Shown: one piece after another, positions 6,944 through 52,176 of the stretch
Position numbering within the stretch: position 1 is the stretch's first letter
Layout of the letters: each line of letters opens with the position of its first letter
Assembly: GCA_016793885.1 (NCBI GenBank)
Contig: JAEUHE010000035.1
Span: 1 to 64,000 of the forward strand
Direction: 5' to 3'
Length of the DNA stretch: 64,000 nucleotides
Source: Verrucomicrobiales bacterium
Lineage (GTDB): Bacteria; Verrucomicrobiota; Verrucomicrobiia; Limisphaerales; UBA11320
Program-made: the position numbers and the translations under genes
The notes under the pieces: model-generated
Told to the model about the DNA's origin: nothing
Databases searched by the model: none
What the model saw: the letters and a program-made list of their open reading frames with translations, nothing else

Positions 6944-7028
6944 GCGGCAAAGGTCTGCCGCACTCCAAAACGTGAAGCAATATGGACTGCTGTAGCCCTC
7001 TACAGCTTTTCGGCACCGACGGAGTCGG
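6944..7028 (+). repeat. Paired-hairpin REP-like repeat (related to 46585-46690)
   Basis: The 355-base gap 6747-7101 holds no gene. Inside it are two dyads: GCGGCA/TGCCGC (6944-6961) and CTGTAG/CTACAG (6990-7005), followed by AGCTTTTC and CGACGGAGTCG. The second dyad and its tail recur at 46650-46690. The rest of the gap shows nothing recognisable, although it must hold the start regions of both the MFS operon and the PSD1 gene. Confidence 0.65.
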
Positions 7029-46516: not shown

Positions 46517-46584
46517 TTGGGGCGACGCAACGGGACAGGATGAATAAGGTGGGTCGCGTTTTCACGTCTCGGCCGGGATGCCCC

Positions 46585-46672
46585 GAAAAGCTGTAGAGAG
46601 GGCTACAGCACTCCAAAAGGCATGCCTGCCTCGCGAAGCGTCTTGGAGTGCTGTAGCCCTCTACAGCTTTTC
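46585..46672. repeat. Large inverted REP-like repeat
   Basis: About 33 bases at 46585-46617 (AAAAGCTGTAGAG, GGCTACAGCACTCCAA) recur inverted at 46642-46672, with a two-base insertion as the only difference. The right arm and its tail CCGACGGAGTCG also match 6987-7026. It occupies the space before the Wadjet operon, and any promoter must lie within or after it (46673-46811). Confidence 0.75.
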
Positions 46673-46811
46673 CCTGCCGACGGAGTCGCCGAATCTCCGC
46701 CAGCACGGAAACGCCCTCACCAGGGTTGGTTCACCCGCCCCCCTCCCTGCTCCAAGCTTGCCTCCTCCCGCTCAATCAGGTAACGCAAAGGAGTATCGAT
46801 CGCCCGTTTTG

Positions 46812-48038
46812 ATGAAAGTTCCGCCGCAGACATTTTTTACCTTTTGCTCGAATCATGTCGCCCTCCTGCGCGCCTTGGCGGACAAGGGTGGCGAGATCTC
46901 GGAAGCGGAGGCTCTGCGCTGCATCCGTACCTGTCCCGGCCTGGCTGACGAACTTCCCGAGACGCCCTGGCGACGGCTTCGCGAGCTGCAAATCCTGGTT
47001 CCCACCGAACCGGGTAGCGATCTCTACCTGATGGCCGAGCCGGTCTCCCGCCTGCTCACCTATCTGTTCAACGAGGCCAATCCCGCCACACCGGAGATGA
47101 TCCGTGGGTACGTGCTGTCATTGGAAACCTGCGGACGCCAGCTTTCCCGCGCGCTCGAGGGTGAGGATGTCCCGGGAGTTGGGCTCGCGTTCGCCGAGAT
47201 CACCCAAACCTTGCGCCGCGTCTACGCCGATCTCGAGGAAACTCATCATGCCATCTTGCTCGAGGTCGCGCGCTACAAGTCAGAGCGCGAGCGCGTTTCC
47301 ATTCGCGACAAGTTCCGCCGCATCGTTCACTGGATGGAGCGCTACGTGGAACCCATGATCGAAATCGTGCGCGCGGACGGATCGCTCCGGGCGGTCTTCG
47401 ATGACACCGAGCGTCTCTTGTGTCTGGCTCGCGACAACGCGCTCTTCCACGACCATCCGGCGCTCCTGCGCAATCTTCGCTACCTGCGTCTCCTGGGGGC
47501 TCATGCGTTGCGAATCTTTGTGCAGTGTCGCAAAGAGATTCAGCCGTTGTACGATTCGCTCCGCCGTTCCAGCTTGATTGCCGAGGGTGCTGCTCGCGCT
47601 CTGGAAGCCCTGCAGAACGAGGGGCTGGAGGCGTGGGGCACTGCCCCCATGGTGGGCGTTTGTTCCCTGCGATTTCAGAGCGTTCCGGGCGATGCCGCGT
47701 TGGAGCATTCCGTCCGACGCGTGTTTCAGCATCCACCCGAACCTGCGCCGATCCTGGAGTTCTCCACCGAAGAATCGGCTCCTGCCGGCTTGATTCGCCG
47801 CTACTGGCTCAACTCCCTCCCCGGGCGCATTCGTCCGGCCATGCCGGTGAATGATCTGCTGGGTTGGATTGTCCAGGAACACCCGGACAAAGAAATCGGC
47901 GACGTGCTCGCCGGGTTCACCGAGCTTCTCTTTCACGAAGGATTCACCGCCCGATTTGTCGATGCCGACCCCCGTGAGTATCAGGCCAATGGCGGGGTCC
48001 TGGCCGGCACCCCGGTCGAGCTTGCTGTCTTGCGCTGA
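46812..48038 (+). CDS. jetA: Wadjet-like JetA (kleisin-type subunit)
   Basis: The 408-residue product is the first of four packed genes laid out like JetABCD. It begins with an N-terminal winged-helix-like part (FFTFCSNHVALLRALADKGG, EAEALRCIRTCPGL), followed by a long helical middle (about 90-250: EITQTLRRVYADLEETHHAI, SIRDKFRRIVHWMERYVEPM, LRNLRYLRLLGAHALRIFVQ) and a C-terminal domain near 285-400. This fits a kleisin of SMC complexes such as MksF, MukF and JetA. It would bridge the SMC heads of JetC and bind JetB in the cytosol. I assign the name mainly from gene order and neighbours. The ATG at 46812 is chosen because the upstream frame is repeat DNA. Confidence 0.75.
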   Translation: MKVPPQTFFTFCSNHVALLRALADKGGEISEAEALRCIRTCPGLADELPETPWRRLRELQILVPTEPGSDLYLMAEPVSRLLTYLFNEANPATPEMIRGYVLSLETCGRQLSRALEGEDVPGVGLAFAEITQTLRRVYADLEETHHAILLEVARYKSERERVSIRDKFRRIVHWMERYVEPMIEIVRADGSLRAVFDDTERLLCLARDNALFHDHPALLRNLRYLRLLGAHALRIFVQCRKEIQPLYDSLRRSSLIAEGAARALEALQNEGLEAWGTAPMVGVCSLRFQSVPGDAALEHSVRRVFQHPPEPAPILEFSTEESAPAGLIRRYWLNSLPGRIRPAMPVNDLLGWIVQEHPDKEIGDVLAGFTELLFHEGFTARFVDADPREYQANGGVLAGTPVELAVLR

Positions 48039-48062
48039 CCCTCCATTTTCTTATCGCCTATC

Positions 48063-48626
48063 ATGCTTCCTCACCTTGCTGACATTTTCGACCACTTGAA
48101 ACGAGGCTGCCACCTGGGGCCCGATGATGAGCCCGCCTTCTCCGCTCTGTGCGCCCGCTACGAGGAATATGCGGCTTACTTCGCTCCGCTGGGACTGCGG
48201 CTCGTCCGACATGATCGCGAGTTCTTTTACTTCGAGCCTGATAACCCCGAGAGCGTCCCGGATACGCTGCCTCGGATCGCGGTGTTCTCCTTCATACTGA
48301 TCGATCATGCCGCCAACCAAGGTCGACCCATTGAGGAGTTCATTTTCGGTCAGAATTTTCTGATGAGCAGCCTGCCGCATTTTACGCTCGATCGATACAC
48401 GGCTCTTTTGCGCCAGGTCGAAGTCCACGACGCTAAAGGATTGGAGTCCGTTCTGAAACACATGGAGCGCATCGGCTGGGTCAAATCCGTGGGACCCGAG
48501 GAGTTCCGCTTTCTTCGCCCGTTCCACCGAATCTTTTCCAAGTGTCTGGAGCTGGCTCAGAATCCTCCGTCACCTCCCGCACCCAACCCCGCTCAGACCC
48601 AGGACACTGCCGCCTCCGCCTCCTGA
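48063..48626 (+). CDS. jetB: Wadjet-like JetB (MukE/MksE-type subunit)
   Basis: The 187-residue product is mostly helical with a winged-helix look: LPHLADIFDHLKRGCHLGPD, FSALCARYEEYAAYFAPLGL, LVRHDREFFYFEPDN, VFSFILIDHAANQG and LESVLKHMERIGWVKSVGPE then EFRFLRPFHRIF. Size, order and the short FYFEP strand fit JetB/MksE (DUF4194-like) partners of the kleisin. The last 22 residues are a Pro/Ala/Ser-rich tail. The start is 24 bases after jetA and the stop is three bases before jetC, so stoichiometric production is likely. Confidence 0.75.
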   Translation: MLPHLADIFDHLKRGCHLGPDDEPAFSALCARYEEYAAYFAPLGLRLVRHDREFFYFEPDNPESVPDTLPRIAVFSFILIDHAANQGRPIEEFIFGQNFLMSSLPHFTLDRYTALLRQVEVHDAKGLESVLKHMERIGWVKSVGPEEFRFLRPFHRIFSKCLELAQNPPSPPAPNPAQTQDTAASAS

Positions 48627-48629
48627 CCT

Positions 48630-51326
48630 ATGCCTACTGGCCCCCAGAAAATCATCCTGATTGGCTCCGGTCGCTATATGTACGCGGAGGTCGAGTTGAC
48701 CGGCGCTTTGCAGATCGTCGGCCCTAACAACACCGGCAAGACGACGCTGATCAACACGCTCCAGTTCCTGTATCTGGATGATCGGCGGAATATGGATTTC
48801 GGCTCCTACACCCCGGAGCAAACGCGGGACTTTTACTTTCCTTCGCAATACAGCTACGTCCTGTTTGAATGCCTGGGTGCTCAAGGGGTCTGCGTGATTG
48901 GATGGCGTGGACAGAGTAAAACGCATGGCGGAGATCCCGAACGATTCTGCTATCTCGGGGCTTATGAGGAATCCGACTTTCTGGACGAGAAACGGCAGGT
49001 GCGTGAACCTCAAGACGTTAATGCTCGCCTCGCATTCAAGCAGTTCAAATCGATCCGCAGTGCTCAGGAACATCGGGAGCTGCTGTTGTCTTCCACGGGT
49101 GCCGGCACGCGCGGCCTAGGAATTGTCAGCCTCCGTGATCCTGACAAGTATCCCCAGTTTCGGGAGACGCTCAAGAATCTGCTCACCCTCAATGCCATCA
49201 CTCAGGAGCAAATGCGGGATCGCCTGCTGATGCTGGCGGACATCCCGCCGGATCGAACCGCTCTCGATGCCCGGGAACTGTTTGGCGAGGATTACGACCG
49301 CATTCGCGAGCGACGTGAACGTCTGCTGCGGTTCAAAAAGCACCAAGGCCTCGTCGAACGGCTGGTGGAACAATCCACGGCGCGAGACCTCTGCCGCGGC
49401 GAGCTGATGTATCGTTGGACCGACCTGCGTGGGAAGCGGCAGGAATTTGAGAAGGAACACGAGAAACAGTTGGCCGGGCTGCGGGAGACTCAGACGCGGC
49501 ATGAACATCGCCTTCGCGAGATGGACGCCGAATTGCTCGATCGACGTACCGACGTCAATCGGTTCTCCGAACAGAAGGGCGGGTTCCAGGTTCAGCTGGA
49601 GCAGCTAGCGCGGCTCGACAAGGAATTCTCCGACTATGTCCAGGAGCTCGAACATGCGGCGATCGCCAATTTGGGGGAATCCATTCGTCTGCTCACCAAC
49701 CAGCTTGCGGATGCTCAGGGTGAATCCCGCGAGAAGGCGCGGCAGAAGCTCGACTTCTTTTCCGAGCAAGTTCGACACAAGGAGCAGACGATCCAAAGCT
49801 TCCACAACGTCGCGGTTACTGCGCTGCGCAAGCACTTCACCGACGATGAGCTGAATCGTCTCTTCCGACTCTTCAACCGGAACCTCCTCGAATACCCGAT
49901 GGGACCCGAGGGCATCAACGTGGTGCGCGAGAAGGAGGTCCTGCGGATGCTCCGAGCTTTGCTCGAACAGCTTTCCGATGACGGACTCCAAGATCCGGCC
50001 TTTGCCATCCGATTCCGCGGCAGTGAACTTCCATTGGCCGGGCTCGAGAACATCGAGGCGGTGCAGGAGCGGCTGGAGGAGGATCGGGACAAATTGGCAT
50101 ATTGGCAGAATGTTCTCCGCGCGATCGAAGAGCGCGAGAAGCTGGAGCAAGAGCTTCAAGCGCGGCGTCACGAACTCACTCTCAAGAACACTCGCCAGGT
50201 GCGGTACGAAGAGTATCAGAAGGCCAAGGCTAACGAGCCGCGCTGGTCTTCCGAACTCAAGGCCATCACCGACGGGATCACAGCCGCTCAGAACCGGATC
50301 GCCAAATTGGTGAAAGAGCAGACCGTGGCGCTGCGGTCACGGGAGGAGGCCGAGGATCTGATCCGCAAAACGGAAGACACCTTCAATCGGGTGATGGGTA
50401 ACTTCGGCCTGTGTGTGTTCCCTGAGTTCGAAGTAGGTCCGCGGGTCGTGACCGATACCCCTAACGACTTTGATGCCGCCATTGCACTGTTCTTGCGTCA
50501 GCAGGACCAGCAGAACCGCGCGAGCGATGAAATCCGAAGGATCCTGGTGGATGTTGAGCGCTGGTTCGGTGAGGAGTTTCGTGGCGATACGGAGGATCAA
50601 ACGGTCCAGCGATTACGTGAAGAATTGGAAGCGCTCGGTGAGCGGGAGGAGGCGTTGACTCGCGATTGGAACGCGCATCTCCACGCCATCCGTGCCACCT
50701 TCGACCGGATCCTAAAGGAGCTTGGCCATGTCTATAGCGCGCGTGATGATCTGAACCGCGCGTTCGCTAAAGTTCAGGTCTCCAATCTGAAATCGCTCCG
50801 CATGGATGTGAAGGAGCAGAGCGATCTGGTGGCTTGGATTCGCAGCCTGGCCGACGCCGAGCAGCCTGGACTTTTCGACGACGACACCAGCCTGTCCTCC
50901 ACCATGAAGAACTTCCGGCACAAGCTGGAAGGTAATCCGGTGGTGCGCTTCGCCGATCTCTTCACTCTCGGTTTCACTGTCGTCGGTGCCGACGATCGCA
51001 AACACAGTTATCACGATCTGCGCCAGATCGAATCCCATGGCACCACCATCACCATCAAGGTGCTGTTCAATCTGTTGCTCCTGAAGAGCCAACTGCGGCG
51101 TGAGGACTGTCAGGTGCCGTTCTTCTTGGACGAGATTCAGATTCTGGATCCTGCCAACCGGCACGCGATTCTGGCAACGGCCCGCAAACTCGGTTTCCTC
51201 GCCATCACCGCAGCTCCGGAAGCTGTCAGCGAAGTGGATGCCCTGTATTTCCTGCAAGCGAACAAAGGCTGGATCGTGTTGCGGCAGAAGCATCGGATTG
51301 GAGTCAAAGGGCGAGCGGCCTCCTGA
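48630..51326 (+). CDS. jetC: Wadjet-like JetC (SMC/MukB-type ATPase)
   Basis: This 898-residue protein has a Walker A motif near the start (IVGPNNTGKTTLINTLQFLY, residues 29-48), long coiled-coil arms (about 220-350 and 490-720, rich in Glu, Arg, Leu and Gln), and a C-terminal half-head with a signature-like SHGTT at 802-806 and Walker B PFFLDEIQILD (Asp834, Glu835). It would be the loop-extruding motor of the complex. The key ATPase residues are intact, so it is probably active. It is shorter than typical JetC proteins (usually about 1100 residues), so the arms are compact. It ends one base before jetD. Confidence 0.9.
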   Translation: MPTGPQKIILIGSGRYMYAEVELTGALQIVGPNNTGKTTLINTLQFLYLDDRRNMDFGSYTPEQTRDFYFPSQYSYVLFECLGAQGVCVIGWRGQSKTHGGDPERFCYLGAYEESDFLDEKRQVREPQDVNARLAFKQFKSIRSAQEHRELLLSSTGAGTRGLGIVSLRDPDKYPQFRETLKNLLTLNAITQEQMRDRLLMLADIPPDRTALDARELFGEDYDRIRERRERLLRFKKHQGLVERLVEQSTARDLCRGELMYRWTDLRGKRQEFEKEHEKQLAGLRETQTRHEHRLREMDAELLDRRTDVNRFSEQKGGFQVQLEQLARLDKEFSDYVQELEHAAIANLGESIRLLTNQLADAQGESREKARQKLDFFSEQVRHKEQTIQSFHNVAVTALRKHFTDDELNRLFRLFNRNLLEYPMGPEGINVVREKEVLRMLRALLEQLSDDGLQDPAFAIRFRGSELPLAGLENIEAVQERLEEDRDKLAYWQNVLRAIEEREKLEQELQARRHELTLKNTRQVRYEEYQKAKANEPRWSSELKAITDGITAAQNRIAKLVKEQTVALRSREEAEDLIRKTEDTFNRVMGNFGLCVFPEFEVGPRVVTDTPNDFDAAIALFLRQQDQQNRASDEIRRILVDVERWFGEEFRGDTEDQTVQRLREELEALGEREEALTRDWNAHLHAIRATFDRILKELGHVYSARDDLNRAFAKVQVSNLKSLRMDVKEQSDLVAWIRSLADAEQPGLFDDDTSLSSTMKNFRHKLEGNPVVRFADLFTLGFTVVGADDRKHSYHDLRQIESHGTTITIKVLFNLLLLKSQLRREDCQVPFFLDEIQILDPANRHAILATARKLGFLAITAAPEAVSEVDALYFLQANKGWIVLRQKHRIGVKGRAAS

Positions 51327-51327
51327 C

Positions 51328-52176
51328 ATGGCTCGAGACGAACAGATCCGGAAATTGCTCTTTACTCTGCAGGAGCAGGGATTTCTTCCGGGATCCAGGT
51401 GCAGCCAGTCCTTTCGCGAATGCGTTCAACCTTTGATCGACTCCGAGATCCTGGTCGAGGAGCGTAGCGGGAGCGGCCGCCGCTGGGTGGTCCGGGATAA
51501 AGGCGCGCTTGCCAGCTTCGTGACCAGCCTGTTTCCAGCAACCTCGGTGGCCGACGATGCTTCAGCGCGCGTGAACAGCGTGGCTCAGTTTCGTCGCAGC
51601 AAGGCGCTGGCGAATGATTTGCCCGAGATCGTAACGCTCCGTGCTTGGGAGCCTGGCGCTACGCTTCTCGTCGATGGGGTTCAGACCTCCGCTTCCGAAT
51701 GCACACGGGAGCATGGCGCCTTCTCCTGCGTTCTCTCCAAACCCTCTCGCTATTCGCTGCGCGGGCCTTGTGCGCTGGTGGAGAACCCGGCAGTGTTCCT
51801 GCAGTTCGAGCGGCTAGCGTTGCCGGTGGGTCTCGCTGTGTATGCGCGCGGCATCTGTTCCGATCGGCTGCTAAGCTGGATCGCGGATCAGACGGCCGAT
51901 GACTTTCGTCTGCTCCACCTCCCCGATTACGATCCCATTGGCTTGAGCGAGTACCTGAGGCTAAAAGACCGATTGGGAGATCGGTTGGAGCTGTATCGTC
52001 CCTCCCGACTCCCTGAGCTGTTCGCCCGGTTTTCGGATCGAGGTCTGCTTGAAAATCCGGTGGCTATCGCTTCCCTTGCGCGGCTGCGGGGCAGCTCGAG
52101 GCCGGAGGTGCGCGAGATCGTCGCTTTGATCGACGCGCATAACGCCGGCCTCGAGCAAGAGGCCCTGCTGTTGTAG
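51328..52176 (+). CDS. jetD: Wadjet-like JetD (Toprim nuclease subunit)
   Basis: The 282-residue product has a short winged-helix-like N-terminal part (about 1-65) and a C-terminal Toprim domain. LVENPAVFLQFERL holds the catalytic Glu152, and LPDYDPIGLSEYLRL supplies Asp200 and Asp202. The end, ALIDAHNAGLEQEALLL, matches the C-terminal helix of JetD/DUF2220 proteins. In Wadjet this topo VI-like subunit cuts circular plasmid DNA that the SMC motor has reeled in. It lacks most of the larger N-terminal region of common JetD proteins (about 380-400 residues). The gene ends one base before the stop of the convergent Gfo/Idh gene. Confidence 0.87.
   Translation: MARDEQIRKLLFTLQEQGFLPGSRCSQSFRECVQPLIDSEILVEERSGSGRRWVVRDKGALASFVTSLFPATSVADDASARVNSVAQFRRSKALANDLPEIVTLRAWEPGATLLVDGVQTSASECTREHGAFSCVLSKPSRYSLRGPCALVENPAVFLQFERLALPVGLAVYARGICSDRLLSWIADQTADDFRLLHLPDYDPIGLSEYLRLKDRLGDRLELYRPSRLPELFARFSDRGLLENPVAIASLARLRGSSRPEVREIVALIDAHNAGLEQEALLL

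What the first reader, a model, noticed from the sequence alone, without database searches (positions are those of the whole stretch)
46812..52176. Compact four-gene Wadjet-like SMC defence operon
Four packed genes (gaps of 24, 3 and 1 bases) encode a kleisin-like protein, a MukE-like protein, an SMC ATPase with intact Walker A and B (Asp834, Glu835), and a Toprim protein with Glu152 and Asp200/Asp202. This matches JetABCD, which cuts circular plasmids. Both JetC (898) and JetD (282) are clearly shorter than the forms I know (about 1100 and 380-400). It could be a distinct subtype with short arms and a reduced nuclease anchor. Inference: it protects this lineage against plasmids.
Basis: partly seen in the sequence, partly recalled or inferred. 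Interest (0 to 1): 0.8.

Follow-up and report, generated by a model that had tools for sequence, protein, structure and literature searches.

The report
Nuclease-bearing MksBEF-type SMC defence operon
A bacterium of the Verrucomicrobiota carries a compact DNA-reeling machine joined to a trimmed DNA-cutting enzyme, probably to destroy invading circular DNA; its nearest relatives include chromosome-folding machines that appear to have lost the cutter several separate times.

Summary
In detail: four co-directional genes (gaps 24, 3 and 1 bases) encode a kleisin (408 aa), a MukE-like KITE (187), an SMC ATPase (898) and a Toprim protein (282), with all cited motifs present. The same order recurs in relatives from Verrucomicrobiota, Acidobacteriota and Chloroflexota and on six large plasmids. 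The interpretation needs correction. The operon is not a shortened JetABCD of Wadjet type I or II: sequence profiles, the ABC signature (SHGT instead of SGGE) and a head tree (100/100) put it in the MksBEF branch, beside Pseudomonas-type MksBEF and nearer to MukB. The fourth protein is a genuine but reduced JetD/MksG relative: winged helix plus Toprim, catalytic E152/D200/D202 invariant in 33 of 33, without the long N-terminal arm; Pfam files its Toprim as DUF7281. JetD and SMC trees agree (Mantel r 0.95). Nuclease-less MksBEF systems do not form one clade (p-AU 1.5e-9; five state changes), which fits repeated loss of an ancestral nuclease. Most likely it works like Wadjet: the SMC motor reels circular DNA and triggers JetD to cut. 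No activity has been shown for this branch. A new variant of a known kind.

The parts
46812..48038 (+). JetA/MksF-type kleisin, 408 aa
   Evidence: NCBIfam Mks kleisin model E 3.5e-18; profile-profile match to Pseudomonas-type MksF set E 2e-74 (one sequence, L115, is in both sets), none to type I JetA
48063..48626 (+). JetB/MksE-type KITE subunit, 187 aa
   Evidence: Pfam MksE PF21980, 98.6 bits against cut-off 27
48630..51326 (+). JetC/MksB-type SMC ATPase, 898 aa: head 1-220 and 715-888, arms about 239-392 and 475-712, hinge about 393-474
   Evidence: NCBIfam Mks SMC model E 9.8e-45; AF2 model pLDDT 78.8, best fold match MukB, Foldseek E 5.5e-24, Z 25.4; Walker A/B and SHGT signature
51328..52176 (+). 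Reduced JetD/MksG-type nuclease subunit, 282 aa: winged helix 1-74, Toprim 98-282
   Evidence: AF2 pLDDT 85.5; residues 98-282 match topoisomerase VI A Z 12.9, MksG 8b7f Z 12.4, JetD 7til Z 10.9; HHalign to type I JetD E 6e-9; E152, D200, D202 invariant in 33 of 33

Best explanation
The operon encodes a four-subunit SMC-nuclease complex of the MksBEF branch that works like Wadjet. Shown by sequence or model: an intact SMC ATPase with short arms, kleisin, KITE, and a reduced TopoVIA-like Toprim subunit with intact metal ligands, all co-inherited. Inferred: two SMC motors joined by the kleisin extrude DNA; on a small closed circle extrusion stalls, the stalled complex engages the JetD dimer and the Toprim centres (E152, D200, D202) cut both strands, clearing plasmids or circular replicative intermediates. 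The long N-terminal arm of JetD (DUF3322 region) is dispensable here. The MksBEF condensins of this branch are most simply read as descendants that lost the nuclease.
For: Conserved four-gene order and tight coupling, often a 4-base overlap. JetD fold, homology and catalytic conservation; a relative with 51% identity passes Pfam's cut-off for JetD_C. JetC fold nearest MukB, then Wadjet JetC. JetD and JetC trees congruent, Mantel r 0.95, 0 of 2000 permutations. Patchy: 4 of 54 genera among relatives. Cross-phylum placement, with Acidobacteriota inside the Verrucomicrobiota clade. No shared neighbours even within the genus. Present on plasmids. The host also has canonical SMC at 1042 bits, so this is accessory.
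Against: No activity data for any member of this branch. Not in a visible defence island: the neighbours are HupE/UreJ, DUF4331, a Gfo/Idh/MocA oxidoreductase and a symporter. Sister systems without the nuclease (Pseudomonas-type MksBEF) act in chromosome organisation (PMC10586767, PMC7485682). GC content equals the genome's (0.593 against 0.600 for the window), so there is no sign of recent acquisition.
Confidence: 0.72

Rival explanations
1. An accessory condensin: MksBEF folds or segregates the chromosome (or a large replicon), and the Toprim subunit acts as a topoisomerase-like helper rather than a defence nuclease.
For: The SMC groups with MksBEF condensins. The JetD model resembles topoisomerase VI A most. 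Large plasmids of 76-972 kb carry it. No defence island nearby.
Against: No conserved catalytic tyrosine: the only near-invariant Tyr/Phe position is inside the Toprim DYD motif. Host already has SMC. Patchy distribution and no shared neighbours.
Confidence: 0.15
2. A divergent member of classical Wadjet type I, II or III that merely became shorter.
For: Toprim half matches PADLOC JetD1/JetD2 at E 4e-3 to 6e-3. Some relatives' JetDs match JetD1, 2 and 3 models; four relatives' SMCs match a JetC3 model weakly.
Against: Type I/II JetC are not hit by the iterated profile, whereas MukB and Pseudomonas MksB are. Separate clade 100/100. Signature SxGT against SGGE/SGGQ. Kleisin has no match to type I JetA. 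Type III SMCs were not in the tree.
Confidence: 0.07
3. A defence system aimed at phage rather than plasmids.
For: Lamassu-type SMC defence shows the principle (PMC10586767); circular phage replication intermediates would be substrates.
Against: Known Wadjet systems act on plasmids. No phage in the collection carries a relative of the SMC, which does not bear on the target.
Confidence: 0.06

Closest known systems
MksBEF condensin (Pseudomonas type, NCBIfam NF040857/NF040858/NF040859)
   Same: Same kleisin, KITE and short SMC (898 aa against 926 model positions), same NNxGK Walker A and SxGT signature, same clade
   Different: Pseudomonas-type locus L137 has three genes and no nuclease; window scores 65-153 bits, far below the curated equivalog cut-offs of 400-1900
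Wadjet JetABCD types I and II
   Same: Four-gene logic; JetD Toprim homology (HHalign E 6e-9 type I, 3e-5 type II); SMC fold
   Different: JetC not recognised beyond the P-loop, shorter SMC (898 against 1120-1367 aa), different ABC signature, JetA unrelated by profile, JetD lacks the N-terminal arm
MksG / JetD nuclease (8b7f, 7til, 8q72)
   Same: TopoVIA-like Toprim, E-N...DxD...EQE motifs
   Different: 282 against about 390-400 aa; winged helix directly precedes the Toprim
E. coli MukBEF
   Same: Closest solved fold for the SMC (Z 25.4); MukB and MukE hit by the family profiles (E 5e-56, 1e-28)
   Different: MukB is 1486 aa and there is no nuclease
Wadjet-group survey of Burmann et al. 2025 (PMC7617805)
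   Same: Surveyed MksB over 890 aa with optional MksG, so this branch may be among its operons
   Different: The passages read do not describe a short-MksG branch or count losses; its Data S1 could not be read

Membership tests
Wadjet types I and II (JetABCD) | JetA, JetB and JetC recognised by PADLOC type models over most of their length | tested here: not met
   No JetA or JetB hit; JetC only residues 7-58, E 3.4e-3
Wadjet types I and II (JetABCD) | JetC groups with type I/II JetC in an SMC head tree | tested here: not met
   Window lies in a separate clade with 100/100 support
Wadjet type III | JetC groups with type III JetC | tested here: inconclusive
   No type III reference was in the tree; a JetC3 model hits only 4 of 13 relatives, best E 2e-4
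JetD/MksG nuclease family | Toprim fold with Glu and DxD metal ligands | tested here: met
   AF2 model and PDB matches Z 12.4 (MksG) and 10.9 (JetD); E152/D200/D202 invariant
JetD/MksG nuclease family | Sequence match to Pfam JetD_C at the curated cut-off | tested here: inconclusive
   Window protein itself below it; close relative L024 passes, 28.5 against 22 bits
JetD/MksG nuclease family | N-terminal arm domain (DUF3322) | tested here: not met
   Only a winged helix of about 74 residues precedes the Toprim
JetD/MksG nuclease family | Cleavage of circular DNA with JetABC and ATP | not testable with these tools
   Needs biochemistry
MksBEF branch | MksE, MksB-type SMC and MksF-type kleisin by profile | tested here: met
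   Pfam MksE above cut-off; iterated profiles and tree; kleisin HHalign E 2e-74
MksBEF condensin (three-gene) | No nuclease gene in the operon | tested here: not met
   Fourth gene is a conserved JetD homologue
Lamassu | LmuB SMC with LmuA/LmuC partners | tested here: not met
   LmuB hit E 8e-8 mostly over arm and head; none of the other three proteins matches a Lamassu model

The most novel reading that the evidence does not exclude
A fourth, unnamed Wadjet-like type: the nuclease-bearing stem of the MksBEF branch, with a minimal JetD. Nuclease-less MksBEF complexes (Pseudomonas type, Leucothrix, Flavobacteriales, some Verrucomicrobiota), among them chromosome-folding condensins, arose from it by at least four or five independent losses of the nuclease, so condensins were recruited repeatedly from a plasmid-defence machine.
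Probability: 0.55. Interest if true: 0.78.

Novelty: new variant of a known kind. Interest (0 to 1): 0.62.

Why it matters
[quoted passage not shown] This branch holds nuclease-bearing and nuclease-less sisters, many at 37-60% SMC identity, in hosts of which some are cultured, so the proposal becomes directly testable by swapping or deleting the nuclease. It also gives a minimal nuclease (winged helix plus Toprim) for asking how a stalled SMC motor triggers cutting, a system that the PADLOC defence library does not call, and a probable function for Pfam DUF7281.

Tried and rejected
Scans of genome contigs and viral contigs with the single SMC sequence found nothing; the alignment scan did. Sequence searches of the PDB with the window proteins and their alignments gave only chance matches; fold search was needed. 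Considered: nuclease-less MksBEF replaces SMC in Flavobacteriales. All 45 genomes of that order lack canonical SMC, but only 19 have this MksB and 18 have MksE, so absence of SMC is not tied to MksBEF; dropped. Considered: a decayed JetD downstream of the three-gene loci. tblastn found no remnant in seven loci. Considered: the inverted repeat before JetA as an operon element. It is a genome-wide repeat with 118 matches. A literature search for a fourth Wadjet type or DUF7281 found nothing relevant.

Full report
OBSERVATION. The four ORFs are at the stated coordinates, packed with gaps of 24, 3 and 1 bases. The window lies on a contig of a draft genome, 95.7% complete and 1.9% contaminated. The contigs of most of its relatives are titled Limisphaerales or Verrucomicrobia, so the host is inferred to be a member of Verrucomicrobiota.

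FAMILY BY PROFILE. Pfam recognises only MksE, above its cut-off. PADLOC sees no JetA or JetB, only the P-loop region of JetC (E 3.4e-3) and only the Toprim half of JetD (E 4e-3). NCBIfam's Pseudomonas-type Mks models match the first three proteins at E 3.5e-18, 1.2e-24 and 9.8e-45, far below the equivalog cut-offs. The library's names MksB and MksF are exchanged relative to the literature.

DISTRIBUTION. In 58 related genomes, six carry the SMC, from 4 of 54 genera, and all five besides the window's own have the same four genes. A scan with the SMC alignment gave 44 loci from Verrucomicrobiota, Acidobacteriota, Chloroflexota, Bacteroidota and Gammaproteobacteria. Plasmids of Salinibacter, Polaromonas, Pseudomonas, Neptuniibacter and Halioglobus, 76-972 kb, carry four-gene versions. 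No phage record matched.

TWO FORMS. Iterated profiles show two arrangements: four genes with a short JetD, and three genes without it. The latter occur in all Flavobacteriales loci in which the downstream region is present, in Leucothrix, in two Verrucomicrobiota (L037, L039), in L105 (where only about 140 bases lie downstream of the SMC and JetD absence is least sure) and in the Pseudomonas-type locus L137. Neighbouring genes of the three-gene loci are unrelated to each other, and no JetD remnant was found in seven tested. The profiles also hit E. coli MukB and MukE but no type I/II JetC.

TREE. A careful head tree of 64 SMCs puts the window in an Mks clade with 100/100 support, apart from Wadjet I/II and MukB. 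The window groups with Acidobacteriota and Verrucomicrobiota four-gene systems (99/91). The Flavobacteriales three-gene group is nested inside four-gene Verrucomicrobiota (91/98). The Pseudomonas-type MksB lies among four-gene systems of megaplasmids (100/92). Five changes of state are needed, one of them resting on L105. Holding all three-gene systems together is rejected, p-AU 1.5e-9; the group was defined by gene content, not from the tree, but several branches are long. The JetD tree agrees with the JetC tree over 31 shared rows (Spearman 0.90, Mantel r 0.95, 0 of 2000 permutations). So JetD was most likely present in the ancestor and lost repeatedly. That is an inference from congruence: parsimony alone does not fix direction.

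JETD. E152, D200, D202 and G205 are invariant in 33 proteins. HHalign to type I JetD: E 6e-9 over the E-N, DxD and EQE motifs. The type I profile itself finds MksG 8b7f, JetD 7til and JetD(E248A) 8q72; the window's E152 lies in the same E-N motif, and its equivalence to catalytic E248 is inferred from the motif, not from a direct alignment. The AF2 model (pLDDT 85.5) matches topoisomerase VI A, MksG and JetD over residues 98-282 (Z 12.9, 12.4, 10.9) and a winged helix over 1-74 (Z about 6.9, weak). The DUF3322 arm is absent. Pfam DUF7281, a family without known function, matches 18 of 21 family members over the Toprim.

JETC. AF2 pLDDT 78.8. Best fold: MukB (Foldseek E 5.5e-24, Z 25.4), then Wadjet I and II JetC. 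Predicted arms of roughly 150 residues on the N-terminal side. All 56 members of the clade in the tree carry SxGT or SxGS in place of the ABC signature SGGE/SGGQ, a handy diagnostic.

CONTEXT. The host has a canonical SMC, so the operon is accessory. Its neighbours are metabolic or envelope genes, not defence genes, and none is shared with nine relatives. GC content is that of the window around it.

MECHANISM. Shown: intact ATPase and nuclease motifs, folds, co-inheritance. Inferred from the Wadjet literature (PMC10586767, PMC10512200): circular DNA is recognised by loop extrusion to completion, after which JetD is activated and cuts. The short arms and the minimal nuclease suggest a stripped version of the same machine. 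Nothing here shows that it acts on plasmids.

NOVELTY. No paper found in the searches describes this form. The survey in PMC7617805 accepted MksB above 890 aa with or without MksG, so these operons may be listed in its Data S1, which could not be read. Hence: a new variant of a known kind, not categorically new.

Noticed in passing
window 46580-46680, second copy near 6987-7006: An inverted repeat upstream of JetA belongs to a dispersed family with 118 matches in the genome, some in arrays with about 123-base spacing near contig ends.
   Followed up: partly
window 46812-51326 (NCBIfam NF040857 and NF040859 matches): The library calls the 412-position kleisin model MksB and the 926-position SMC model MksF, the reverse of the literature.
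   Followed up: no
L101, L108, L109, L110: Relatives with a long SMC (about 1200 aa) but the same short JetD; L110 has an extra 272-aa ORF between JetB and JetC, and L109 has ORFs between JetC and JetD.
   Followed up: partly
L115 9703-10902, L117 9667-10869: Pseudomonas megaplasmid versions have a fifth gene of about 400 aa overlapping the JetD end.
   Followed up: no
order of G510 (Flavobacteriales), 45 genomes: None has canonical SMC by TIGR02168 at E 1e-30; 26 also lack this MksB, so their condensin is unknown.
   Followed up: partly
L102 1-6900: Repeated peptide LQWGRALSSADT in several ORFs looks like a translated CRISPR array next to a type I JetC.
   Followed up: no
L055 1578-4299: The Anaerolineae SMC is split over two frames, a frameshift or assembly error.
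   Followed up: no
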